Shown one piece after another: positions 1 through 12,838 of a stretch of 64,000 bases of DNA. A model generated the notes under the pieces. That model worked only from the letters and a program-made list of their open reading frames with translations. It had not been told where the DNA came from and searched no databases. The DNA lies in contig NZ_LT629735.1 of assembly GCF_900104925.1 (NCBI RefSeq), positions 1,892,291 through 1,956,290 on the forward strand. The letters are read 5' to 3'. The translations under genes and the position numbers were made by a program. The stretch is from Opitutus sp. GAS368 (lineage in GTDB: Bacteria > Verrucomicrobiota > Verrucomicrobiia > Opitutales > Opitutaceae). How positions within the stretch are numbered: position 1 is the stretch's first letter; every line of letters starts with the position of its first letter.

Positions 1-698
1 GGCACAACGAAGTGCATCTCATCGAAATTCAGCAACGGGCTATAGTTGAGGTCTGTGACGTATTGATAGGCCAGGAAGTCGCCGATGGTTGGGTAGCCCA
101 GAAGCAGGGAGAACGCTTCTTGCATGGAGCCGGCCTCAATGAGTTTTTGAGGAAGATGGTCAGTGATCATCCGGGCGAGCAGATCAAGGTGCATACGGTG
201 CTTCCGCCCAGTCTTGTTCAGTTTTCCACCGGAGGGCATGATATAGGCCGGAGAATAAATCCGCTTCCCTGCCGCCATGGCGCGCGTCAGCACTTGATCG
301 TAGGCGCGAACGAAGCCCGGCGCATAACGAACTTCGCCAAATTCGCGCTCCAATAGTTCCCAAGTGTCGATCCGGTTGAAGATCTTGAAAAGCAGGATGC
401 GGAAACAAAGCTGAATGGGATCTTGGTCTCCGCGGTAAATCACCGAACGGATGAGATATTGGCTGACTCGGTCAGAGGCCCGGTAGGCGTTTGTGAATTT
501 GTGCGCCTGGAGCACGGGGTCGTCCGTCCAAGGTGCAGGCTGGCCGGCGATTCGCGCGAAGAAAATCCGTTGCCGCTCGGTGCTGAATTTCCAATAAGTA
601 TCGTAAACGACGGTCGGTTTGGCCGGCGAAAGGTGAACCAAAATGTTCGGTCGTGGTGGCGTGAAAGAGGCGAGGTTTCTTCGAGCAGTTGTAGGCAT
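1..698 (-). CDS. 5-hmdU DNA kinase helical-domain-like protein, partial (C-terminus beyond left edge)
   Basis: An open minus-strand frame begins at ATG 698 and runs off the left edge after 232 residues. The ATG overlaps the stop of the upstream kinase gene (TAATG), which supports this start and translational coupling. The protein contains the segments VYDTYWKFSTERQ, WTDDP, KFTNAYRASDRVSQYLIR, FRILLFKIFN, IYSPAYIMP and LGYPTIGDFLAYQ. I recognise these as typical of the all-alpha domain named 'HMUDK_hel' / 'nucleotide kinase domain-containing protein', known from the phage enzyme that phosphorylates 5-hydroxymethyl-deoxyuridine in DNA. No P-loop is present in the visible part; the adjacent gene supplies one. 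Inference: it acts with that kinase on a modified thymidine nucleotide or base. The family recall is from memory and could not be searched. Confidence 0.7.
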   Translation of the reverse strand, partial: MPTTARRNLASFTPPRPNILVHLSPAKPTVVYDTYWKFSTERQRIFFARIAGQPAPWTDDPVLQAHKFTNAYRASDRVSQYLIRSVIYRGDQDPIQLCFRILLFKIFNRIDTWELLEREFGEVRYAPGFVRAYDQVLTRAMAAGKRIYSPAYIMPSGGKLNKTGRKHRMHLDLLARMITDHLPQKLIEAGSMQEAFSLLLGYPTIGDFLAYQYVTDLNYSPLLNFDEMHFVV

Positions 699-1318
699 TA
701 GAGTCGCGGGAGCACACCGAGCGTTGTGAGGCGAGCCAAGCAGGATATTACGCGATCCTCGACCGATTGTGTGGGCCCCAGTTGGTCGATAGGGGCATGT
801 GCCCCCTGAACCTCGACCAATTGGCGATAAGCAGCTTGGACGGCTTCCCATTGCGGGGTGAGCGGATCGTCGAATGGGGCCGGGCGTAGGGTGCAAAAGA
901 TCACCGCAGGCTTAATAGGTTGCCACGCGTCGCACTCTATTTTGACGAGTTGATTAAGCAAGGTGGTGGAGAGACCCTGGGCGTGGCCATGGGCCCACAT
1001 CGACCACCAATACCGATCAAGCACAATCCAGCGGCCGGAAGCCAAGGCCGGCTTTATGCGGGACTCTATTGCATCGAGATGTGCTGCTAAATGGAGAACT
1101 TGGCGAGTTGCCGCTGGCAGCGCCGTGATCCCAAAACGGTCGGGTTTATGCTCTAGATCATAGACCACGGCTCCGATGGATGCGGTGCCGCGTCCTGGGA
1201 ATGACATGTATTCGGCGTGAACCCCCCGCTGGGCAAGGGCTGTAGGCAATACTTGCGCGAGCGTGGTTTTACCCGTGTTCTCGGGCCCCTCGACGACAAT
1301 GAGATGACCGAGGTTCAT
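698..1318 (-). CDS. Thymidylate-kinase-like P-loop nucleotide kinase
   Basis: This 206-aa cytoplasmic kinase-fold protein has a Walker A motif GPENTGKTT (residues 11-19) and a DRYWW motif (101-105) like the DR(Y/W) substrate motif of dTMP kinases. Housekeeping Tmk is about the same length, but this one has an atypical P-loop (GPENTGKT rather than GxDGxGKS/T) and lies in a mobile island, so it is probably not the core enzyme. The start lies 1 bp after the stop of the dCTP-deaminase-like gene, and its stop overlaps the start of the helical-domain gene, so all are co-translated. Phage 5-hmdU DNA kinase fuses a P-loop kinase to a helical domain; here the two parts may be split into neighbouring genes (inference). 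Confidence 0.75.
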   Translation of the reverse strand: MNLGHLIVVEGPENTGKTTLAQVLPTALAQRGVHAEYMSFPGRGTASIGAVVYDLEHKPDRFGITALPAATRQVLHLAAHLDAIESRIKPALASGRWIVLDRYWWSMWAHGHAQGLSTTLLNQLVKIECDAWQPIKPAVIFCTLRPAPFDDPLTPQWEAVQAAYRQLVEVQGAHAPIDQLGPTQSVEDRVISCLARLTTLGVLPRL

Positions 1319-1319
1319 G

Positions 1320-2018
1320 TTACGGTTTCTTGTTGGAAGGAGCCGTGGCAGGCGCTTCGTTACTCGAGTAGTGGCCGGTGTTATTCTGGATGATTAGCCC
1401 CACAATGCCGAGAATCAGGACAACGAGGCAACTCCAGAGCAGCTTGGCGTGGAACTTGGAGGTGGATTCCAGCGTGCGAATGCGCTCGGTGAGCATAGCG
1501 GGTGAAGCGATGTCCCCATCAATCTCCATGACGGCCTGTGGCTGGATTCCCCGCTGGCCGGAGTAACCGCCGGTGTAGAGATCACGCGTAGGTGCGGTCA
1601 GGTCACTGAACCAGATCAGAAAAACCGGATCTCCGCAGCCGATCCGAACCGAGCGACAACCTGCATTGTAGACTGAAAATACGAGTTGCCCGGTGAACCC
1701 CGGATCGACGTGAAACCCGGATACGTTGACAAGGCCCTTAAGCTTAATCTTGGCCTTTATGGAGATGAACGCGAGGGCGCTGTCGGGCACTTTAATGACT
1801 TCGGCCGTGTGCAGCAGGGCGAATTGGCCGGGTGGAATTTCGACATGATCGCCCGGCCAGAGAGAGACCTTTTTCTTGATCGGCGACGAGGTGACGTAGG
1901 CCTCGTTGCCCAAACTCATCTCATAGGCCGCGTGCTTGATGCGCCGAGCGTCATAAGGGGTAACCAAGTTACCCGCCGGGATACGCTGCCGAAGGGTTTC
2001 ACTAGACCAGAATGACAT
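1320..2018 (-). CDS. Membrane-anchored dCTP deaminase/dUTPase-fold protein
   Basis: The 232-aa protein has the trimeric dUTPase/Dcd beta-barrel signature: AAYEMSLG near residue 31, PPGQFALLHTAEVIKVP at 62-78, a variant SIKAKIKLKGL where Dcd has the RSSLARLGL type, HVDPGFTGQLVFSVYNAG at 103-120, and a final PVFLIWF. In E. coli Dcd the catalytic Glu sits in a VLEFYN-type segment. Here the equivalent reads VFSVYN, so the Glu appears to be missing, and deamination is doubtful. A hydrophobic helix at about 192-210 followed by a polar Pro/Ala tail predicts a C-terminal membrane anchor, which is unusual for the family. It may bind or sense a pyrimidine nucleotide instead of converting it (inference). 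It is part of the seven-gene operon. Confidence 0.72.
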   Translation of the reverse strand: MSFWSSETLRQRIPAGNLVTPYDARRIKHAAYEMSLGNEAYVTSSPIKKKVSLWPGDHVEIPPGQFALLHTAEVIKVPDSALAFISIKAKIKLKGLVNVSGFHVDPGFTGQLVFSVYNAGCRSVRIGCGDPVFLIWFSDLTAPTRDLYTGGYSGQRGIQPQAVMEIDGDIASPAMLTERIRTLESTSKFHAKLLWSCLVVLILGIVGLIIQNNTGHYSSNEAPATAPSNKKP

Positions 2019-2025
2019 GGCGGGA

Positions 2026-2859
2026 TTAGGCGACGGCCGCTGCGGCTTCTGCGGCGGCGATTTGGTTGCGAATCAGTTTTTCCAATGGGCGCAGCGGAGT
2101 CTTACTCACACCTTCGCCGCCAAGTAGGGGGTGGGCGATCACGCAATTCATCCGGATGAGGTGCAGACCCATGTTCTTGGCCATATATCGGCCCAAGTGG
2201 CAAAGACCGAGGTAGTTGCCATAGCCGCGGTCGAAAATGAATTCGCTCGGATAATAGCCCGTGATGGCCAGGCCCTCATGCTGACTGTCGTAGCTCAGGC
2301 TAACCTGCTGAAGGCATGGGAATCCGCTTCGGGCTTTCCCGTGGTGATCGCGGTGTGGGTCGAAGCACGCCATTTGCAGTGCGGAGCGGCGGTGACTACC
2401 GGCCCCGCGCCAGAACGCCAGGATCTTGGCGGGTTGATCGACATGGGCTGGAGACAAGTGTCCTTGCTTGTCGATATCGGCCCCGAACGCGACCATGCGC
2501 TGGAAATAGGTGCCCGTGCGATTCCCTCGATGGGCACGATACATGAAGGGGAAAATCCATTTCCGGAAGCCCGGCGCGAACTTCTCGTGTGGCGGTTGCT
2601 TTTGGAATTCCCAGGCGTCGTTGGGGAAAATAGTGTAAGCGGTGTTGGTTACGGGAAGCAGACCGTGGGCCTTCAGTGCAGCATCAGTCGCGTTACGAAT
2701 CACCGGATCTTCGATGGGCAGTCCCTTGGGGGTGAAAGCCTCGACGGAGAGAGTGATGGGAGCATGGGTCGAATCGGGCCCCATCATGCGCAGGAACGCC
2801 TTGCCCCAAGCATAGGACAGGTTCGTCTCAGCAATTATTTCAGGCCGGTTCGTTGACAT
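2026..2859 (-). CDS. Thymidylate synthase-like protein (possible pyrimidine hydroxymethylase/methylase)
   Basis: This 277-aa protein has ThyA-fold landmarks: SHRRSALQMACFDPHRD (155-171) matches the phosphate-binding SRRxxxxxWxPxxD region, FPCLQ (180-184) carries the candidate nucleophile Cys182 in the PCH position, and RGYGNYLGL (211-219) matches the D-x-x-x-G-x-P-F-N segment with Asn215. The usual PCH is PCL and the region around RSxD is altered, so substrate and product may differ from dUMP/dTMP. The same fold serves phage dUMP and dCMP hydroxymethylases. ATG 2859 overlaps the preceding metallopeptidase gene by 20 bp; longer upstream starts would lie deeper inside that gene. The kinase and Dcd-fold genes downstream support a role in nucleotide modification. 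Confidence 0.65.
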   Translation of the reverse strand: MSTNRPEIIAETNLSYAWGKAFLRMMGPDSTHAPITLSVEAFTPKGLPIEDPVIRNATDAALKAHGLLPVTNTAYTIFPNDAWEFQKQPPHEKFAPGFRKWIFPFMYRAHRGNRTGTYFQRMVAFGADIDKQGHLSPAHVDQPAKILAFWRGAGSHRRSALQMACFDPHRDHHGKARSGFPCLQQVSLSYDSQHEGLAITGYYPSEFIFDRGYGNYLGLCHLGRYMAKNMGLHLIRMNCVIAHPLLGGEGVSKTPLRPLEKLIRNQIAAAEAAAAVA

Positions 2860-3712
2860 CGGGATCCTCCAAAAATCTGAATTTGCTGCGCCCCACATAA
2901 TCTTTGCGGGCCACCCGCACGAAACTGGACCAGCCGTGGTCTTCAGAGAACACGCGACAGTAACCCGGCCGGACCGCCTCGAACCACGTGCCATGAAAGG
3001 TAATGCCGATCTGCTGCAAGACGGCGCCGTCGGCTTGGAAGCCCACCGGCAAAATCAGCGCGTCGCCCACGGTCAGATCGATCGGCACGCGCCACCAATA
3101 TTGGTCGGCGATGATGAGGTGCCGTGGGTCTGGGGTGCCAAGGACATTGGTGCGGATTTCCTTGGGGCTGGTCTTAAGCAAACGCTCGGCCCGGTCGTCC
3201 TTGATCAGCTTTACACCGTAGCGGAGGTGCTGCACTAGGGTCTCGTATCCGATCCCCAGTTGGTTCGCGATGCGGTAGCAGTCCAGCGCTTCGCAACGTG
3301 CCGGCACCAGGCTGCGCCGTCGGAAGGCATCTTCAACCGCCCAGTCGGGCATCAGCAGGTGTGAGGCGAACACATTGGCCATCCGCTCGTCGGGATCGTC
3401 CGATCCGCCTTTGTCGAGTTCCTCGATGAGTTCGACTCGGGTGCCATGACCGAACGCCCAATGCCCAAGTTCATGCGCGCAGGTAAACGCCTGCCGTCCC
3501 GGCGGGCGCTTGGTGGGAATCAGGATTTTTTCAAAGTCTTTCGCATACATTCCACCGAAGCTGTTGCCCGCCACGAAGCGCACCTCGACCTTCAGTTTGG
3601 TGGCTAGGTCGAAGACGCAAACCGGTTCAATCGCCTCGTAGCCGGCCTTCAGCCGGCAACGGAGCGCACGATCGATTGCTTTAACTATTTGGGGGCGAGT
3701 CAGGGTGGCCAT
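2840..3712 (-). CDS. ImmA/IrrE family metallo-endopeptidase
   Basis: The 290-aa protein has a zinc-protease HELGHWAFGH motif (His80, Glu81, His84), followed by the DERMANVFASHLLMP helix typical of ImmA/IrrE proteases that cleave XRE-type repressors. The C-terminal half (residues about 190-290) is an extra domain of unknown role. It is encoded 10 bp after the XRE repressor gene, the usual arrangement for a repressor and anti-repressor protease pair, and overlaps the thymidylate-synthase-like gene. Inference: it cleaves the adjacent XRE protein in response to a signal, derepressing the operon. Confidence 0.85.
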   Translation of the reverse strand: MATLTRPQIVKAIDRALRCRLKAGYEAIEPVCVFDLATKLKVEVRFVAGNSFGGMYAKDFEKILIPTKRPPGRQAFTCAHELGHWAFGHGTRVELIEELDKGGSDDPDERMANVFASHLLMPDWAVEDAFRRRSLVPARCEALDCYRIANQLGIGYETLVQHLRYGVKLIKDDRAERLLKTSPKEIRTNVLGTPDPRHLIIADQYWWRVPIDLTVGDALILPVGFQADGAVLQQIGITFHGTWFEAVRPGYCRVFSEDHGWSSFVRVARKDYVGRSKFRFLEDPDVNEPA

Positions 3713-3722
3713 TGCGGGAAGC

Positions 3723-4052
3723 TCACTTTCTCTTCATGGTTCGTAGGAGCTTGAGAACCATGTCCAAATCATCGGACTTGAGCTTCCCTAACTCTCTGGC
3801 TGCCAGTTCAACTTTTGGGTCCGCCATCGTGGCGGTGCCTGAAATTATCCACTCGACATTGACATCGAAGATTTCGGCCAACTGCGCGATTTCTTCGGCA
3901 GTTACGCGACGGCGACCAGCTTCGATTTCCGAGACAGCAGGTCGCTGCAGCTTCAGCAGGGTTGCGACCTGACCTTGGGACAAGCCGGCCTGCTCTCGGG
4001 CCGCGCGAAGGCGATCAGCGATCTCGGTGCGACGAGTTTCGAGGTCACTCAT
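3723..4052 (-). CDS. XRE-family helix-turn-helix transcriptional regulator
   Basis: This 109-aa DNA-binding protein has an N-terminal HTH (GLSQGQVATLLKLQRPAVSEIEAG, residues about 23-46) with the classic LSQ and SxIExG signatures. A short helical tail follows, ending in a basic KRK. It overlaps the upstream 106-aa gene by 8 bp and precedes the ImmA/IrrE gene by 10 bp. The palindromes upstream of the operon at 4381-4404 are its probable binding sites, making it autorepressing (inference). Confidence 0.9.
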   Translation of the reverse strand: MSDLETRRTEIADRLRAAREQAGLSQGQVATLLKLQRPAVSEIEAGRRRVTAEEIAQLAEIFDVNVEWIISGTATMADPKVELAARELGKLKSDDLDMVLKLLRTMKRK

Positions 4053-4365
4053 GTTTCTGGCCTCCGTGTTTTGCCAGATGATCCATCACGCGGTCGGCAA
4101 TTTCTCCGAGTGTGCGATAGCGCCGCGTGCCGCTGGAGTCATCGGCCCAATCGTATACTTCGTTGGGCAGATCCAGTTCGTCGGATTCACGGGCGAGTTC
4201 CGGGCCGACTTGGGCCAGGTCGAGGGAGGGAATCCCGAGGGTGAGCACCGGGTCGATGTTCTCGGGGATAGGCTCTTCAGCTTCTTCGGTTTTGCCTCGG
4301 AAAATGAGAATTTTCCGGACGGCCTTTGTTAGGCAGGTGAGGACTTCTGGGCGTGTGTAGCTCAT
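4045..4365 (-). CDS. Hypothetical acidic protein, first gene of the nucleotide-modification operon
   Basis: The 106-aa protein matches no family I recognise. It has a basic N-terminal stretch (about residues 1-26), an acidic centre with many Glu/Asp, and a C-terminal amphipathic segment (RYRTLGEIADRVMDHLAKH). No membrane helix or metal motif is visible. It starts about 25 bp downstream of the operator palindromes and overlaps the XRE gene by 8 bp, so it is translated with the repressor. It could be a small antitoxin-like or regulatory partner, but nothing in the sequence proves this. Confidence 0.7.
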   Translation of the reverse strand: MSYTRPEVLTCLTKAVRKILIFRGKTEEAEEPIPENIDPVLTLGIPSLDLAQVGPELARESDELDLPNEVYDWADDSSGTRRYRTLGEIADRVMDHLAKHGGQKHE

Positions 4366-4380
4366 GGTGGGCGGGATGCC

Positions 4381-4412
4381 TTACACTGTGTAAGAAAATC
4401 TTACCATGTCAA
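4381..4412 (-). promoter_or_regulatory. Promoter and overlapping palindromic operators of the seven-gene operon
   Basis: Two perfect palindromes overlap upstream of the first gene: TTACAC-T-GTGTAA (4381-4393) and GTAAGA-aaa-TCTTAC (4390-4404). Both are built from TTAC/GTAA half-sites. On the minus strand a perfect TTGACA -35 box lies at 4412-4407, immediately upstream, so a bound repressor would cover the promoter. The -10 box is weak. The probable binder is the XRE protein of the operon. Confidence 0.6.
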
Positions 4413-4570: not shown

Positions 4571-4882
4571 TCAGGCGTCAACCCGACCGTCAACTTTGCG
4601 AAGCCCCAAAGCAATGGCGGCTTCTACCAACACTCGGACGACAGGGTTGCATCCCTTAAAGGCAACCTTGTGCAACACGTCTTGGCCGTGCTGTTCGACA
4701 ATACCGGCAACCAAAGCGTTAACGAATGAACTGTTAGCACTCCGCACGCCGGTAAAATCAAGCACGACCTGCTCACATAGGCTGAGATAGGGCTCGACCC
4801 GCGCCAAGCGATAACAGCTCGCTGCTTCGCCATCAGCGAGCTGCGGGCCGAAGTCGGTCGCGAGGAACAGTTCGTGTTTCAT
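4571..4882 (-). CDS. STAS-like domain protein (DUF4325-like)
   Basis: The 103-aa protein has a STAS/SpoIIAA-like arrangement: VVLDFTGVRSANSSFVNALV at about 38-57, followed by a C-terminal helix. Such DUF4325-type proteins are commonly encoded directly beside a histidine-kinase-like ATPase, as here: its ATG overlaps the stop of the ATPase gene (ATGA). By analogy with anti-sigma/anti-anti-sigma pairs, it would bind the ATPase or be phosphorylated by it. The conserved Ser/Asn cluster (SANSS) marks the site where such phosphorylation occurs in STAS proteins (inference). Confidence 0.7.
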   Translation of the reverse strand: MKHELFLATDFGPQLADGEAASCYRLARVEPYLSLCEQVVLDFTGVRSANSSFVNALVAGIVEQHGQDVLHKVAFKGCNPVVRVLVEAAIALGLRKVDGRVDA

Positions 4883-5814
4883 GGTTGGAAGCTATCCGAT
4901 AGACCCGGCGGGCGCAAGAGTCCAGCCGCGGCTTTGGCGGCAGTAAGCAGCGCTGCAAAGTCTTGCACCTGATTTTGAGGAACAGTAAGGGCCAGTAAAG
5001 TTCCCTGAAATACGGCACCATGCCCTTGTTCTTGAGCGATTACATGCCCATGCGCGTCCATTGTTAACATACCGCGCCCGCTGACGATCAGGAGTCGTGC
5101 CCCGGTCAACCGGGCTAGTCCCGATACGAGGGTCAATCCCACGCCTTCGTTGGTAGGGCTGCCCTTGCTGGAGACGAAGGGCTCAAGCGCCTTTTGGATG
5201 GCGCCCGGATCGTCCAGTCCCGCACTCCACGAGAACCCCGCGTCGCGGAAACTTTGCCGAATGCCCTTGCCGTTGTCTGCCAGGGCGAGCCGCACGAAGC
5301 CCTCGTGCTGGGTGACCTGCGCCGTCGCGTAGCCGATTCCGCCGCTGTGCTGCCTGACGTTGTTTGCGACCTCAGTGAGAACATACCACACGAGGTCATA
5401 CAACGCGGCCAATGGATGGTCGAGATCGTCGCCTCCGGGGGCGACGCACATCGCCATGTCGTGGCCCATGGCATCGACCGGGTGGTCGATCAGTTGGACC
5501 GGCATGAATCGACCCGCGGCTTGGTGGCGGGTAAAGTGCTCGGGCAGTTGCACGTCGCAGGTCTTCAACACATCCATGCGCTGGAGGTAGCCGGTGATCG
5601 CGCAGGATCCAAGGTTGTCGAACAACACAATGCGGCCGTCGCGCTGCCAGCGCTTCACAGTTGCGACCAGAGCTACCATTCCGGCTGGCGAGACGCGTCG
5701 GAGTTGGGCGAAGTCTAGCAGGACAGTGCGCTCAGTGACGGGTTGTCCGATCAATTCAAGGAAGTGCGGCAGACCTGCGGCGTTTATTTGCGCGGGAACA
5801 ACAATGCGATGCAT
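4879..5814 (-). CDS. STAS-HATPase fusion protein (histidine-kinase-like ATPase)
   Basis: With the start at ATG 5814 the protein has 311 residues; an in-frame ATG at 5856 would add 14. Residues about 1-90 look like a STAS domain (VLLDFAQLRRVSPAGMVAL). From about 135 on there is a GHKL ATPase: N box EVANN (148-152), G1 DNGKGI (180-185) and G2 GVGLTLV (224-230). There is no dimerisation/phospho-acceptor His domain, so it is not an ordinary sensor kinase. It forms an overlapping pair with the STAS-like gene downstream. Similar pairs occur in accessory and defence-rich regions; the role is unknown. Confidence 0.75.
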   Translation of the reverse strand: MHRIVVPAQINAAGLPHFLELIGQPVTERTVLLDFAQLRRVSPAGMVALVATVKRWQRDGRIVLFDNLGSCAITGYLQRMDVLKTCDVQLPEHFTRHQAAGRFMPVQLIDHPVDAMGHDMAMCVAPGGDDLDHPLAALYDLVWYVLTEVANNVRQHSGGIGYATAQVTQHEGFVRLALADNGKGIRQSFRDAGFSWSAGLDDPGAIQKALEPFVSSKGSPTNEGVGLTLVSGLARLTGARLLIVSGRGMLTMDAHGHVIAQEQGHGAVFQGTLLALTVPQNQVQDFAALLTAAKAAAGLLRPPGLSDSFQP

Positions 5815-6145
5815 GGAGATGGGCGGCGACCGGTCACAACAATGGTTTGTTACCAACCAAACTCGCGGGAGAGAGGCTGTCGAGGTAAGACGTGGCCCGC
5901 CCGCGGAGGCTTCAAGTTGCCGGGCTCCGCTCGACTGCTGCCTCGCCTCCGCCCGTCAACCCGCAGCCACCGCTTCCGCCCTTCTTTTGGGAAAAGAACC
6001 AAAAAGGCGGGCCGGCGCAGACGTTGGCGGAGCCGGCCAGCCGCCAACGACTGCTCTGGCCCGCGCGACGTGTTAGGGGGAGAGCCGGCACATCGGTTAC
6101 CCGGCCGCCTTTGCGTGATTTCAGGCGGCATGGTAGGGTCAGGGC
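5815..6145. other. Intergenic region between divergent island genes, with inverted repeat
   Basis: No convincing gene lies in these 331 bases. The reading frames present have no recognisable product and include low-complexity stretches. A short inverted repeat, CTTTT-ggg-AAAAG (5984-5996), sits inside a larger imperfect palindrome bounded by CCGCC and GGCGG (about 5977-6010). Promoters for the ATPase (leftward) and the zinc-ribbon gene (rightward) must lie here, but none is clear. Confidence 0.5.
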
Positions 6146-10361: not shown

Positions 10362-11861
10362 ATGACCGAGAGGCCCAAGAAGGCCGAACTCACCAAGCAG
10401 GTGGGGATTTGGATTCGCGTGAGCACGGAGGATCAGGCGCTGGGCGACAGCCCGGCAATCCACGAGACCCGCGCCCGCGAATACGCCAAGTTCAACGGGT
10501 GGAATGTCCGCGAGGTTTACGACCTGGCCGGGGTTTCGGGCAAGACGGTCATGGAGCACCCCGAGGCCAAGCGGATGCTGGACGACATTAAGCGCGGGCA
10601 CATCACGGCGCTGATTTTCTCCAAGCTCGCGCGGCTCGCTCGCAACACCAGGGAGCTTTTGGAGTTCTCGGACTTCTTCCAGTCCCACGGGGCGGACATG
10701 GTGTCACTGCACGAAAAGATGGATACGGGCACGCCGGCCGGCCGGCTGTTTTATACGATCATTGCCGCGATGGCCCAATGGGAACGGGAGGAGATCGCCG
10801 ACCGCATCCGGGCGTCCGTTGCGACGCGATCAAAACTCGGCCAGCAGATCAGCGGCACCTCGCCCTATGGCTACGTCTGGAAAGACGGCAAAATGGTGAT
10901 CGAACCCAAAGAAGCGATCATCCGGAAGCAAATCTATGAGCTGTTCCTCGAACACCGCCGTATTGGCACTGTGGCGCGGATGCTCAACGAGGCGGGTTAT
11001 CGCACGAGGGCGGGGGCGACGTGGAGTGATACGGCGGTATTACGCTGTATTGTTCATCCCACCGCCAAGGGCGTGCGTTACTCCAATGTATTTAAAAAAA
11101 CCGGCAGTTGGGCGGCCGAGGAGAAGCCGGAAGATCAGTGGTTCGTGCATCCGATCGAGCCCATCGTGTCAGAGGAGGTTTGGAGCACGGCCAATCGGAT
11201 GATCGAGGAGAGGAAGAAGCAGAACAAGCGCCCCACCAAGCGGCCGACGCATATTTTCGCGGGCATCGCCCACTGTCATTGCGGCCACCGCATGTATGTG
11301 CCCACCACTTCCACGAAATACGTCTGCCATAAGTGTAAGAACAAGATTCCCGCGGCGGACTTGGAAAGCATCTTCCATGAGGAGTTGAAGAACTACTTTG
11401 CCGACCCGGAGCGCATCACGCGGCATTTTCTGGCGGCTAAAAAGAACACGGACGAGAAGGAGCAGCGGGTCGCGTTGCACCGGCAGGAAATCGAGAAGAC
11501 CAAGGAAGAGATGACTCGGACGCACCGACTTTACTTGGACGGCCGGTTGAACGATCAGAGCTTCACCGCGCTCTACCGGCCGCTGGAGGACCAGGTGCGC
11601 CAGTTGGGTGTTTCGATTCCGGCCTTGGAGGCGGAGCTGGCATTCCTCCGCATCAACGAGGTTTCGGCCGACCAAGTGTTGCGGGACGCCCAAAAGCTTT
11701 ACGAGCGCTGGCCCCAGCTGACCACCGAGCGAAAGCGCCGGGTGATCGAATCCATCGTCGAAAAAATCACGATTGGCACCGACGATATAAGCGTAACCTA
11801 TTGCTATATTCCATCTTCGGAAGAACTAACACTTTCCCAACAGCGCCTACCAGCGCCGTAA
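10362..11861 (+). CDS. Large serine recombinase (integrase/resolvase family)
   Basis: The 499-aa protein has an N-terminal resolvase catalytic domain (WIRVSTEDQ with Ser21 as nucleophile, then SKLARLARNT and AAMAQWEREEIADRI). A recombinase domain follows, then a zinc ribbon (HCHCGHRMY...CHKCKNK, about 303-330), then a long coiled coil (about 365-460), which is the standard large serine integrase layout. The RBS AGGAGG is at 10351-10356. The 3' end, including the last residues, runs into the host TRIC gene sequence, so the gene lies at the right end of the element and its own stop codon is supplied by the chromosome. Confidence 0.93.
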   Translation: MTERPKKAELTKQVGIWIRVSTEDQALGDSPAIHETRAREYAKFNGWNVREVYDLAGVSGKTVMEHPEAKRMLDDIKRGHITALIFSKLARLARNTRELLEFSDFFQSHGADMVSLHEKMDTGTPAGRLFYTIIAAMAQWEREEIADRIRASVATRSKLGQQISGTSPYGYVWKDGKMVIEPKEAIIRKQIYELFLEHRRIGTVARMLNEAGYRTRAGATWSDTAVLRCIVHPTAKGVRYSNVFKKTGSWAAEEKPEDQWFVHPIEPIVSEEVWSTANRMIEERKKQNKRPTKRPTHIFAGIAHCHCGHRMYVPTTSTKYVCHKCKNKIPAADLESIFHEELKNYFADPERITRHFLAAKKNTDEKEQRVALHRQEIEKTKEEMTRTHRLYLDGRLNDQSFTALYRPLEDQVRQLGVSIPALEAELAFLRINEVSADQVLRDAQKLYERWPQLTTERKRRVIESIVEKITIGTDDISVTYCYIPSSEELTLSQQRLPAP

Positions 11862-12336
11862 GCAGGTAGAACTGGCCGGGCTTGAACACCAGCGGCTCCT
11901 CGCGCGTGAGCACATCGCGCAGCAGGCCGCCGCCGACGGCGTTGATCACCCCGACGAGCACGGCGGCCGAGGGCGGCAGGCCGGAGTTGAGGGATTTTTG
12001 CACGCCGAACACCGCGTAGGCGCCCAGCCCCAACGCATCGACCCACGCGATGAGCCGGTGGAAACGATGGACGTGCTGCCGGAAGAAAAGGCTGACCACC
12101 GTGGCCGCCGTGATCGTATACATGTAGGCGGGGTTCGTGAGCAGCGGCGTGAGGCCGTCCCGCAGAAAAATGCCGTCACGGATCAGCCCGCCGCCGATGC
12201 CGGACACCAGGGCGAGGGCCAGCACGCCCACGATATCGTAGTGGCGGCGGATGGCCGCGAGCGCGCCGGTGAGGGCGAAGGCGAAGGTCGCCCCGAGGTC
12301 GAAAAGCACCGGCAGGTCAAAACTCCCTTTCAGCAT
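11767..12336 (-). CDS. TRIC/UPF0126 channel family membrane protein, 3' end altered by island insertion
   Basis: The 189-aa membrane protein contains two glycine-rich repeat modules: VSGIGGGLIRDGIFLRDG near residue 43 and NAVGGGLLRDVLTREEPL near 135, the YadS/UPF0126 hallmark. About 5-6 of the expected seven helices remain. The usual length is around 200-210 residues. Here the final helix is replaced after about residue 166 by 23 residues encoded by the mobile element. The gene is convergent with and overlaps the recombinase. Whether the altered protein works is unknown. Confidence 0.85.
   Translation of the reverse strand: MLKGSFDLPVLFDLGATFAFALTGALAAIRRHYDIVGVLALALVSGIGGGLIRDGIFLRDGLTPLLTNPAYMYTITAATVVSLFFRQHVHRFHRLIAWVDALGLGAYAVFGVQKSLNSGLPPSAAVLVGVINAVGGGLLRDVLTREEPLVFKPGQFYLLTALVGAVGKVLVLPKMEYSNRLRLYRRCQS
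11825..11850. other. Probable right attachment junction of the genomic island
   Basis: Read leftward, the TRIC gene is conserved through the TALVGAV segment and then changes abruptly to a non-family tail (GKVLVLPKMEYS...). The rightward recombinase reading frame enters the same bases. The crossover therefore lies at about 11825-11850, around AACAGCGCC. The left junction, with the displaced TRIC 3' end, should lie to the left of this window. Confidence 0.5.
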
Positions 12337-12430
12337 GGCAGGGTGGGGTTAAGGGCTGGTGGCCCCAAAAACCCGCCGTGACAAGCGAACTTTGTCCCGC
12401 AACGCTGTCCCAGACCCTAGACCGCGCACC

Positions 12431-12838
12431 ATGAAGATCCCCCTCACCCCCCTGATCCTGTCCTGGCTGCTGGCCGGCTGCGCCAGCGAACCCGCCGCCT
12501 TTTTGCCGGAGGAAAGCGCCAAGTATTCGCTGGAGAACACGGAGAAATTTCAGCTGCTGGACCGGCCGGTGCAGGAAGCCGTGTCCTGCACCGGCCTGCA
12601 GGAACGCTTCGGGGAGTCCGGCCGCCTTGAAGTGGTGGCCAATCTCCGCAACCACGGCCGCGAGGCCATCACCATGCAGGTACGCTGTGTGTTCAAGGAT
12701 GCGGCAGATGTACCGACGGGCGACGAGACCCCGTGGCAGGCGCTGAACCTCGCGGCGGGCGACACCGAGGCGGTGCGCTATTCCGCGGGGAACAACCTCG
12801 CGCGAAAATTCACCATCCTGGTCCGCGCGGCCCGGTAA
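12431..12838 (+). CDS. YcfL-like (DUF1425) lipoprotein
   Basis: The 135-aa secreted protein has a lipobox LLAGC (cysteine at about residue 17) and a C-terminal domain with VVANLRNHGREAITMQVRCVFKD, the pattern of DUF1425/YcfL lipoproteins. It is monocistronic in appearance, next to the divergent TRIC gene. The molecular role is unknown. Confidence 0.7.
   Translation: MKIPLTPLILSWLLAGCASEPAAFLPEESAKYSLENTEKFQLLDRPVQEAVSCTGLQERFGESGRLEVVANLRNHGREAITMQVRCVFKDAADVPTGDETPWQALNLAAGDTEAVRYSAGNNLARKFTILVRAAR

What the first reader, a model, noticed from the sequence alone, without database searches (positions are those of the whole stretch)
1..4412. Seven-gene island operon joining XRE/ImmA control to a thymidine-modification-like enzyme set
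Seen: one minus-strand operon, with genes overlapping or separated by at most 10 bp, encodes an unknown 106-aa protein, XRE, ImmA/IrrE, a thymidylate-synthase-like enzyme, a dCTP-deaminase/dUTPase-fold protein, a thymidylate-kinase-like P-loop kinase and a 5-hmdU-DNA-kinase-helical-domain-like protein. Known: phages that hypermodify thymine use a ThyA-like dUMP hydroxymethylase, nucleotide kinases and a 5-hmdU DNA kinase. Inferred: a bacterial system that makes a modified pyrimidine nucleotide or base, or senses such phage nucleotides, kept silent by the XRE protein and released by ImmA cleavage. To my knowledge this combination is not characterised.
Basis: partly seen in the sequence, partly recalled or inferred. 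Interest (0 to 1): 0.9.

Follow-up and report, generated by a model that had tools for sequence, protein, structure and literature searches.

The report
Inducible thymine-modifying operon with carrier protein
A bacterial gene cassette, found in ten phyla behind one and the same DNA switch, joins an acyl carrier protein to enzymes of the kind that viruses use to make and phosphorylate a modified thymine; it is probably a switchable anti-virus system of a form not met in the paper searches made here.

Summary
The operon is real and larger than reported. An eighth gene lies just outside the window: a thymidylate-synthase relative closest to phage dUMP hydroxymethylases. The 'unknown' first gene is an acyl carrier protein (ACP): its attachment serine stands in 70 of 70 aligned copies, and fold and profile searches agree. 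The 'thymidylate kinase' and the 'helical' protein are two halves of one enzyme, a 5-hydroxymethyl-dU DNA kinase, fused in 29 of 80 related loci.

The set ACP, XRE, ImmA, TS-like enzyme upstream of the kinase recurs: all four are present in 55 of 65 loci with enough flank, in 11 phyla. A palindrome, GTAAG-N5-CTTAC, stands just before the ACP gene in 56 of 75 copies, this one included, against 0 of 15,000 shuffled controls.

Best reading: an XRE-repressed, ImmA-released cassette that makes hydroxymethyl-dU, phosphorylates it and probably completes the modification with a carrier-bound group, most likely as anti-phage defence. Gene order, operator and enzyme classes are shown; the product, the role of the ACP and defence are inferred. 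Nearest tested relatives in the papers read are systems with TS, dNMP kinase, 5-hmdU kinase and NMAD domains validated against phage in E. coli; ACP, XRE and ImmA are not mentioned for them in the parts read.

The parts
4407..4412 (-). TTGACA, possible -35 element of the operon (its -10 is not clear in this copy)
   Evidence: Sequence read. In 66 aligned copies a weakly conserved TTGAC stands about 17 nt before the operator's TAAGAT; here the TTGACA directly adjoins the operator, so the spacing differs.
4390..4404 (-). probable XRE operator GTAAGATTTTCTTAC, ending 24 nt before the ACP start codon
   Evidence: GTAAG-N5-CTTAC exact in 56 of 75 ACP upstream regions (this one included), <=1 mismatch in 66 of 75; 0 of 15,000 shuffled controls exact, 0.29% at one mismatch. 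In the 4.15-Mb genome the tighter pattern GTAAGANNNTCTTAC with <=1 mismatch occurs only here, without mismatch; the reversed control pattern also matched once somewhere, so one match is near the chance rate.
4380..4384 (-). third operator half-site GTAAG
   Evidence: The letters GTAAG stand at this spacing in 43 to 54 of 66 aligned copies, column by column.
4045..4365 (-). acyl carrier protein (106 aa), phosphopantetheine serine in the motif GIPSLD
   Evidence: Serine in 70 of 70 aligned copies and 62 of 62, this copy included in both; PP-binding PF00550 in 11 of 62 members, not in this one; PDB profile hits are ACPs, best 1.6e-7; model pLDDT 88.8, best match a holo-ACP, Z 10.2, rmsd 1.9, 79 aligned.
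3723..4052 (-). XRE-family repressor (109 aa), CapH-like
   Evidence: HTH_31 2.1e-14; best PADLOC hit capH 2.4e-15.
2840..3712 (-). ImmA/IrrE metallopeptidase (290 aa), CapP-like, HELGH motif
   Evidence: Peptidase_M78 1.2e-11; best PADLOC hit capP 4.1e-18; HExxH in 82 of 82 aligned copies.
2026..2859 (-). TSa: divergent thymidylate-synthase-fold protein (277 aa), nucleophile Cys kept, RSxD and HxY motifs not found
   Evidence: AlphaFold2 pLDDT 94.1; best matches FAD-dependent dCMP hydroxylase 9iqc Z 16.2 and CMP hydroxymethylase MilA Z 15.9; Cys and Asn in 80 of 80 aligned copies.
1320..2018 (-). dCTP-deaminase/dUTPase-fold protein (232 aa) with a C-terminal hydrophobic, probably membrane-spanning segment
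   Evidence: DCD 1.5e-14, TIGR02274 6e-20 but below its cut-off; hydrophobic tail read by eye from the sequence.
698..1318 (-). P-loop (thymidylate-kinase-like) kinase, the kinase half of a split 5-hmdU DNA kinase (206 aa)
   Evidence: Thymidylate_kin 2.1e-13; the same domain matches inside 31 of 103 HMUDK ORFs; Walker A G-x4-GK[TS] in 17 of 17 aligned separate copies.
1..698 (-). helical half of the 5-hmdU DNA kinase (351 aa); runs 358 nt past the window's left edge to genome 1891933. The operon's eighth gene, TSb (336 aa, dUMP-hydroxymethylase-like), lies wholly outside the window at genome 1890939-1891949, minus strand (L003:940-1950).
   Evidence: HMUDK_hel PF18723 2.2e-110, open frame without stops. 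TSb: Thymidylat_synt 4.3e-19, SPO1-like dUMP hydroxymethylase 1.9e-41.

Best explanation
A mobile, switchable cassette that makes and phosphorylates 5-hydroxymethyl-deoxyuridine and completes the modification with a dedicated carrier protein, most likely as an inducible anti-phage system. (1) XRE binds a GTAAGATWATCTTAC-like site plus a third half-site and keeps the operon off [site conservation shown; binding inferred]. (2) ImmA, on a DNA-damage or infection signal such as single-stranded DNA, cleaves XRE [inferred from the homologous pair CapH/CapP]. (3) TSb makes 5-hmdUMP from dUMP; the Dcd/dUTPase-like protein steers the dUMP/dUTP supply [homology]. (4) The P-loop kinase and the helical protein act together as a 5-hmdU DNA kinase and put phosphate on hydroxymethyl-U, in DNA or as nucleotide [domain fusion shown; activity inferred]. 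(5) Holo-ACP carries an acyl or aminoacyl group, or offers its own thiol, which TSa and/or the helical domain bring to the activated base [inferred; weakest step]. (6) The product blocks transcription or replication of the template, stopping the phage or the cell [inferred].
For: Gene set: ACP, XRE, ImmA and TSa all present in 55 of 65 loci with >=4.2 kb upstream, in 11 phyla over all 80 loci. Operator: 56 of 75 exact against 0 of 15,000 controls. Kinase fused to the helical domain in 29 of 80 loci, separate in 15. TSb aligns end to end with an SPO1-like dUMP hydroxymethylase (1.9e-41, residues 2-313) against 1.9e-10 for E. coli ThyA, and such enzymes are among its best phage matches; it keeps the Asn of uracil-type enzymes. 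TSb occurs only where the kinase does: 27 of 38 against 0 of 30 loci (but see evidence against). The ACP serine is invariant, with AcpS-like genes near 27 of 80 loci. Regulators closest to CapH/CapP, a pair whose protease is activated by ssDNA (PMC13373217, passages). Phosphorylating hmU in a template cut E. coli RNA polymerase output to 37% of unmodified and 10% of hmU DNA (PMC6457204, passages). Systems with TS, dNMP kinase and 5-hmdU kinase domains were validated against phage in E. coli (PMC13092281). Surroundings: 217 PADLOC families matched at 1e-10 among 135 neighbour proteins of 20 loci, against 21 among 129 proteins of other regions of the same genomes. A cassette with ACP, XRE, ImmA, TSa and MazG sits between terminase and portal genes of a phage contig (L114).
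Against: No product, activity or phage assay is available. Kinase and TSb are missing from 30 of 68 loci and no HMUDK was recognised in L114, so hydroxymethylation plus phosphorylation cannot be the whole story. Among the 14 neighbour families found in four or more loci (not all of them identified) I recognised no acyl- or aminoacyl-activating enzyme, so what the ACP carries is unknown. TSa lacks motifs of working TS enzymes. The kinase/TSb link rests on only 6 independent pairs on the tree (sign test median p 0.25). PADLOC families overlap one another and no family matched more than 2 neighbours, so 217 against 21 overstates the difference; the control also holds defence-like genes. The reversed control of the operator search also matched once in the genome. 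The own TTGACA is not at the consensus spacing.
Confidence: 0.45

Rival explanations
1. Free-nucleotide poison or signal: the enzymes never touch DNA but make a modified deoxynucleotide (possibly loaded from the ACP) that stops polymerases or triggers a nearby effector.
For: Several proteins are of mono- or triphosphate type: TS folds, Dcd/dUTPase, MazG-MazG_C, dTMP-kinase-like P-loop. Effector-like genes stand beside some relatives: TIR and TIR-SLOG, patatin, a gene annotated as caspase (no Pfam match for the piece held).
Against: The helical domain belongs to a family named for acting on hmU in DNA; effector-like genes are not constant, and none was recognised in this operon.
Confidence: 0.2
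2. Self-marking: the cassette hypermodifies the DNA of its own host or mobile element, protecting it as phage hypermodifications do.
For: Same enzyme types as phage thymidine hypermodification; 7 plasmid records carry a TSa relative; related HMUDK genes sit beside dnaE/dnaQ-like genes on two plasmids.
Against: A repressor, a protease and a conserved operator point to a normally silent cassette; a protective mark would be on all the time. No nuclease was recognised in the operon.
Confidence: 0.12
3. Targeting of phages that already carry hmU DNA: the kinase and carrier protein add a blocking group to incoming modified DNA.
For: 30 of 68 loci lack TSb and a recognised kinase, so hmU might come from the phage; the authors of PMC6457204 suggest defence against hmU phages as a possible role of the kinase (passages).
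Against: 27 of 38 kinase-bearing loci carry their own hydroxymethylase-like TSb.
Confidence: 0.1
4. Ordinary nucleotide metabolism or a nucleoside natural-product cluster that happens to be regulated by XRE/ImmA.
For: TSa resembles MilA of mildiomycin synthesis in fold.
Against: Patchy: TSa in 3 of 387 genomes of the own phylum, the own one included, and 4 of 398 of another, its centre included; the genome has a ThyX-like gene for dTMP; I recognised no export, glycosylation or peptide-synthesis family among the 14 that recur in four or more loci.
Confidence: 0.08

Closest known systems
Systems with TS, dNMP kinase, 5-hmdU DNA kinase and NMAD domains validated in E. coli MG1655 by the DefensePredictor study (PMC13092281; section 5 read in full, figure legends as passages)
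   Same: The domain set TS, dNMP kinase, 5-hmdU kinase; relatives of the present operon with TIR-like and Nmad2-like neighbours (L034, L037, L053, Nmad2 confirmed by Pfam in L037) show the NMAD as well.
   Different: No ACP, XRE, ImmA or divergent TSa is mentioned in the text read; whether the four domains form one system, and the sequences, could not be checked (no supplements). A distant DNA search of E. coli genomes with a relative (L037) found nothing.
Phage thymidine-hypermodification pathways (ViI, M6, phi W-14; PMC6449724 as passages; Lee et al. 2018 and 2022 not held, recalled)
   Same: dUMP hydroxymethylase-like TS and a 5-hmdU DNA kinase with P-loop and helical parts.
   Different: Bacterial, repressor-controlled, with ACP and often AcpS; no aGPT-Pplase or PLP enzyme was recognised in the operon; own TSa has no match in 50,697 phage records.
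CapH/CapP control modules of CBASS, BREX and other immune operons (PMC13373217, passages)
   Same: Small XRE-type repressor plus M78 peptidase at the head of an operon.
   Different: Preceded by an ACP gene in 55 of the 59 well-flanked loci that have XRE, ImmA and TSa, and with one operator shared across phyla; the cargo is a nucleotide-modification set.
MilA CMP hydroxymethylase and FAD-dependent dCMP hydroxylase (solved structures 5b6e, 9iqc)
   Same: Fold of TSa.
   Different: 10 to 12% identity; substrate and cofactor of TSa unknown.

Membership tests
Acyl carrier protein | Conserved serine that takes the 4'-phosphopantetheine arm | tested here: met
   Ser in 70 of 70 and 62 of 62 aligned copies; preceded by Asp in 57 of 70, by Pro in this copy alone.
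Acyl carrier protein | ACP fold | tested here: met
   Model pLDDT 88.8; the best rows are carrier proteins by title, Z 10.2 over 79 residues at the top. Helical bundles can reach such Z by chance, but the PDB profile search by sequence gives ACPs at 1.6e-7.
Acyl carrier protein | Match of this copy to the Pfam carrier family | tested here: inconclusive
   PP-binding matches 11 of 62 members (best 1.2e-7) but not the window's own copy.
Acyl carrier protein | Carries phosphopantetheine in the cell | not testable with these tools
   AcpS-like genes near 27 of 80 relatives; the own genome has PF01648 matches elsewhere (2).
5-hmdU DNA kinase | P-loop kinase domain plus HMUDK_hel domain | tested here: met
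   Here in two adjacent genes; fused in 29 of 80 relatives, e.g. L041.
5-hmdU DNA kinase | Phosphorylates hmU in DNA | not testable with these tools
   Needs purified protein.
dUMP hydroxymethylase / TS (TSb) | Catalytic residues of ThyA (Y94, R126, C146, R166, S167, D169, N177, H207, Y209; roles recalled) | tested here: met
   Invariant in 14 TSb sequences plus E. coli ThyA.
dUMP hydroxymethylase / TS (TSb) | Closer to hydroxymethylase than to ThyA | tested here: met
   1.9e-41 over residues 2-313 against 1.9e-10 over 168 columns, one reference of each kind. Activity not tested.
Canonical thymidylate synthase (TSa) | TS fold with nucleophile Cys | tested here: met
Canonical thymidylate synthase (TSa) | R-S-x-D and H-x-Y nucleotide/folate-site motifs | tested here: not met
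   The segments that I line up with them lack both in 80 aligned copies (placement by eye and by a weak profile alignment). Not filed as a canonical TS.
dCTP deaminase | DCD fold family | tested here: met
   PF22769 1.5e-14, over its cut-off; TIGR02274 6e-20 but below its cut-off.
dCTP deaminase | Deaminase glutamate (position recalled) | tested here: not met
   The position that I recall as the catalytic Glu is S or A in 27 of 29 and R in 2; the Asp that I recall from dUTPases is kept in 29 of 29. Not filed as a deaminase.
CapH/CapP regulator pair | XRE repressor and adjacent M78 peptidase with HExxH at an operon head | tested here: met
   HExxH in 82 of 82.
CapH/CapP regulator pair | Peptidase activated by ssDNA cleaves the repressor | not testable with these tools
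   Needs purified proteins.
TS/dNMPk/5hmdUk/NMAD systems of PMC13092281 | Nmad domain next to the enzymes | tested here: not met
   None of the eleven genes scanned in and around this operon matches one; relative L037 does, as do neighbours clustering with it in seven other loci.
Phage thymidine-hypermodification pathway | Enzyme that replaces the phosphate by an amino group (aGPT-Pplase type) | tested here: inconclusive
   No such Pfam match among the operon's eight proteins; a gene of a radical SAM cluster follows HMUDK in 8 relatives (Pfam checked in one).

The most novel reading that the evidence does not exclude
Carrier-protein-templated modification of thymine: hydroxymethyl-U activated by phosphorylation is attacked by the thiol of holo-ACP, or by the group it carries, with TSa or the helical domain as the transfer enzyme, so that DNA (or a nucleotide) is tagged with an acyl-pantetheine group or with the carrier protein itself, and this tag is the anti-phage act.
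Probability: 0.18. Interest if true: 0.95.

Novelty: new variant of a known kind. Interest (0 to 1): 0.74.

Why it matters
None of the listings returned by my searches (open-licence papers only) showed a paper that ties an acyl carrier protein to modification of DNA bases or to phage defence. Yet here one with an invariant attachment serine heads a gene set seen in 11 phyla. It would add a chemistry (thioester or phosphopantetheine) to DNA and nucleotide modification, and give a role to proteins now annotated only as 'nucleotide kinase domain-containing'. The conserved operator makes the system testable at once: one short palindrome helps to predict where the cassette is and how to switch it on.

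Tried and rejected
Rejected: the 106-aa protein as a novel family (it is an ACP); TSb as the housekeeping thymidylate synthase (a ThyX-like gene with two Thy1 stretches is elsewhere in the genome, although TSb is the only PF00303 match); TSa as a plain TS (motifs not found); the Dcd-like protein as a plain deaminase; phage origin of TSa (no match in 50,697 phage records; 1 locus in a pattern scan of viral contigs); loss of Trp80 as a sign of hydroxymethylase activity (T4 dCMP hydroxymethylase has a Trp82 at the folate site, PMC6400193, passages). I first wrote that TIR and Nmad2 replace the ACP module; in fact neighbours of those two clusters also stand near loci with the module (L023, L056, L095, L101), so replacement is not strict.

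Led nowhere: finding an E. coli relative by distant DNA search (no match) or through plasmids with Nmad2 (16 records, none of Escherichia); PDB search with the neighbouring 279-aa protein (one hit at E 0.44). MazG or AcpS against the kinase gave no signal after allowing for relatedness. Papers not held: Iyer et al. 2013, Lee et al. 2022 and 2018. Iyer 2013 is the likeliest place for an earlier mention of such operons, which limits the novelty claim.

Rows dropped: five loci with broken or distant HMUDK, and HMUDK stretches under 270 aa, were left out of the tree; 15 of 80 loci with under 4.2 kb upstream and 12 of 80 with under 3 kb downstream were not counted in those tables; 4 of 80 loci have no phylum label; for the PADLOC comparison up to seven proteins per region were drawn at random from 164 and 201 candidates, and those over 900 aa (4 of 139 and 7 of 136) were left out; one of the 20 test loci, L053, lacks the ACP module. 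The operator pattern was chosen after seeing the palindromes, so its counts in these loci are not blind; controls are the shuffles and the whole-genome count, where the reversed pattern also matched once.

Full report
WHAT IS THERE. The window's left end carries a minus-strand operon with genes overlapping or up to 10 nt apart. Reading past the window edge shows the end of the helical gene and one further gene, TSb, overlapping it by 17 nt with the start chosen here. So there are at least eight genes: ACP, XRE, ImmA, TSa, Dcd-like, kinase, HMUDK_hel, TSb (genome 1890939 to 1896655). A convergent 279-aa gene without a named family follows. Upstream, on the same strand, lie a DUF4325 STAS-like gene and a STAS-HATPase gene. 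The first 6 kb have lower GC (57 to 59%) than most of the window, and a serine recombinase lies at 10362-11861, so the operon is probably part of an island.

THE FIRST GENE IS AN ACYL CARRIER PROTEIN. Relatives on three plasmids are annotated so. In 70 of 70 aligned copies, this one included, the serine that would carry phosphopantetheine is kept, after Asp in 57 and after Pro only here. A second alignment gives 62 of 62. Pfam PP-binding matches 11 of 62, not the window's copy itself. A profile of 55 members finds ACPs in the PDB (best 1.6e-7). The model (pLDDT 88.8) matches carrier proteins (best Z 10.2, rmsd 1.9, 79 residues). Holo-ACP-synthase-like genes stand near 27 of 80 relatives.

KINASE AND HELICAL PROTEIN ARE ONE ENZYME. 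HMUDK_hel is at 2.2e-110. A profile of the separate kinases matches inside 31 of 103 HMUDK ORFs, N-terminal to the helical part, in 30 of them over most of the kinase. Of 80 loci, 29 have the fusion and 15 a separate kinase gene. Pfam sees Thymidylate_kin plus HMUDK_hel in the fused L041 protein.

TWO TS-FOLD PROTEINS. TSb keeps the nine ThyA catalytic residues checked. It aligns end to end with an SPO1-like dUMP hydroxymethylase (1.9e-41), far better than with E. coli ThyA (1.9e-10); SPO1-type dUMP hydroxymethylases are among its best phage matches. It keeps the Asn that goes with uracil where T4 dCMP hydroxymethylase has a cytosine-reading Asp (PMC6400193, passages). The genome's dTMP can come from a ThyX-like gene. 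TSa has the TS fold, a Cys and an Asn in 80 of 80 aligned copies, but the R-S-x-D and H-x-Y motifs were not found. Its profile alignment to TS is weak (hhalign probability 21%, E 0.001), so the fold, not the sequence, carries the assignment.

RECURRENCE. Of the 65 with at least 4.2 kb upstream, 60 have XRE, 60 ImmA, 60 TSa, 55 ACP, and 55 all four; of the 59 with XRE, ImmA and TSa, 55 have a recognised ACP. The ten exceptions are listed; three of them, L034, L037 and L053, have TIR-like and Nmad2-like neighbours (Nmad2 8.9e-70 in L037). Such neighbours also occur near loci that do have the module (L023, L056, L095, L101). Of the 80 loci, 76 bear a phylum label, 12 phyla in all; the four-gene set is present in 11 phyla (60 labelled loci), and together with the operator at one mismatch or fewer in 10 phyla (55 loci); the Spirochaetota locus lacks the set and the Bacteroidota locus lacks the operator. 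Labels come from the titles of records, many of them metagenome bins. The tree of 96 HMUDK domains needs 22 changes of phylum where 11 is the least, which suggests transfer but does not prove it. TSa was found in 3 of 387 genomes of the own phylum, the own included and none of the other listed genomes of its genus or family, and in 4 of 398 of another phylum, the centre genome included.

TWO FLAVOURS. Among 68 loci with at least 3 kb downstream, TSb is present in 27 of 38 with a kinase and 0 of 30 without; kinase-less loci mostly have MazG (23 of 30, against 14 of 38 of the others). Fisher's test for TSb gives 1.9e-10, but rows are related: only 6 independent pairs remain and the sign test gives a median p of 0.25. 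So the link is suggestive only.

THE OPERATOR. GTAAG-N5-CTTAC stands exactly within 100 nt upstream of ACP in 56 of 75 copies and with at most one mismatch in 66; shuffles by a dinucleotide chain gave 0 exact and 0.29% with one mismatch in 15,000. Of 54 exact sites in 1.28 Mb of fetched loci, 51 lie within 110 nt upstream of ACP. The other three are 132 nt upstream of ACP (L040), 22 nt inside the ACP frame as I called it (L054), and about 350 nt upstream of the XRE gene in a locus without a recognised ACP (L097). The aligned consensus is a weak TTGAC, 17 nt or so, then TGGTAAGATtaTCTTACca-N3-GTAAGA. TAAGAT fits a -10 element, so the repressor would cover the promoter; in the window's copy the TTGACA is displaced, so its promoter is unsure. 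In the own genome the tighter pattern GTAAGANNNTCTTAC, one mismatch allowed, occurs once, without mismatch, at window 4390-4404; the reversed control pattern also occurs once, so that count alone is not telling. The shared site across ten phyla is the strongest evidence that this is one coherent, self-regulated unit.

HOW IT PROBABLY WORKS. The XRE and ImmA proteins are closest to CapH and CapP in PADLOC; CapP is activated by ssDNA and cleaves CapH (PMC13373217, passages). Once released, TSb would supply hmdUMP, and the split kinase would phosphorylate hmU. Phosphorylated hmU in a template lowered E. coli RNA polymerase output to 37% of unmodified DNA and 10% of hmU DNA in vitro (PMC6457204, passages), so the modification could by itself stop gene expression. 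The ACP, nearly always in front, implies a group carried on phosphopantetheine; TSa and the helical domain, common to both flavours, are the candidates for handing it on. This last step is inference.

IS IT DEFENCE? For: CapH/CapP-like control; systems with TS, dNMP kinase and 5-hmdU kinase domains validated against phage in E. coli (PMC13092281, section 5 in full and legends as passages); richer PADLOC surroundings than other, arbitrarily chosen regions of the same 20 genomes (217 against 21 families at 1e-10, from 135 and 129 proteins; families overlap and none matches more than two proteins, so this is rough); TIR, SIR2, ABC-3C, caspase-annotated and patatin genes beside relatives on annotated plasmids; and a phage-borne ACP-XRE-ImmA-TSa-MazG set with the operator, between terminase and portal genes of a viral contig (L114). 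Against: no experiment, and no effector recognised in this operon.

LITERATURE. Searches with the terms ACP, ImmA, thymidylate synthase, 5-hmdU kinase, HMUDK, Nmad, CapH/CapP and Pfam names returned listings none of which shows a paper on this operon; only open-licence papers are held, and most listed papers were not opened. Iyer et al. 2013, the likeliest earlier source, could not be opened. Hence 'new variant of a known kind', with a bolder reading kept as the novel case.

Noticed in passing
L114 (viral contig IMGVR_UViG_3300017540_000228), 6345-9573: ACP-XRE-ImmA-TSa-MazG with the same operator but no recognised HMUDK, between a gpA-type terminase and a lambda-family portal gene; a DUF1643 gene precedes it.
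   Followed up: partly
L034, L037, L053: Kinase-HMUDK-TSb (with Dcd in L037 and L053) beside TIR-like and Nmad2-like genes, without ACP-XRE-ImmA-TSa; perhaps the form nearest to the systems validated in E. coli.
   Followed up: partly
L104, L112, L070, L097, L083, L081, L077, L108: A gene of one radical SAM cluster follows HMUDK in these eight loci (Pfam checked for L104 only).
   Followed up: partly
L088 and L095, about 10580-12760: A long TS-related gene near the cassette; in L095 it is a calcineurin-like phosphoesterase fused to a TS-like domain.
   Followed up: partly
L019, L065, L068, L072: A gene of one papain-like cluster between ImmA and TSa (Pfam Peptidase_C1 checked in L065).
   Followed up: partly
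window 4571-5856, minus strand: DUF4325 STAS-like gene and STAS-HATPase gene just upstream, recalling CapS/CapK controllers (PMC13373217, passages) but without recognised HTH parts.
   Followed up: partly
window 10362-11861, plus strand: Large serine recombinase (Resolvase plus Recombinase domains), a candidate integrase of the low-GC island that holds the operon.
   Followed up: partly
L003:69-908 (genome 1890068-1890907): Convergent 279-aa gene with H-G and C-C-F-G motifs that look caspase/CHAT-like to me by eye; only a PHROG of unknown function matched (2.1e-11), and the PDB search gave nothing.
   Followed up: partly
L047, L069, L071, L074, L087, downstream of the cassette: A gene of one cluster, DUF1643 by Pfam in L047, recurs in cyanobacterial copies on the opposite strand.
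   Followed up: partly
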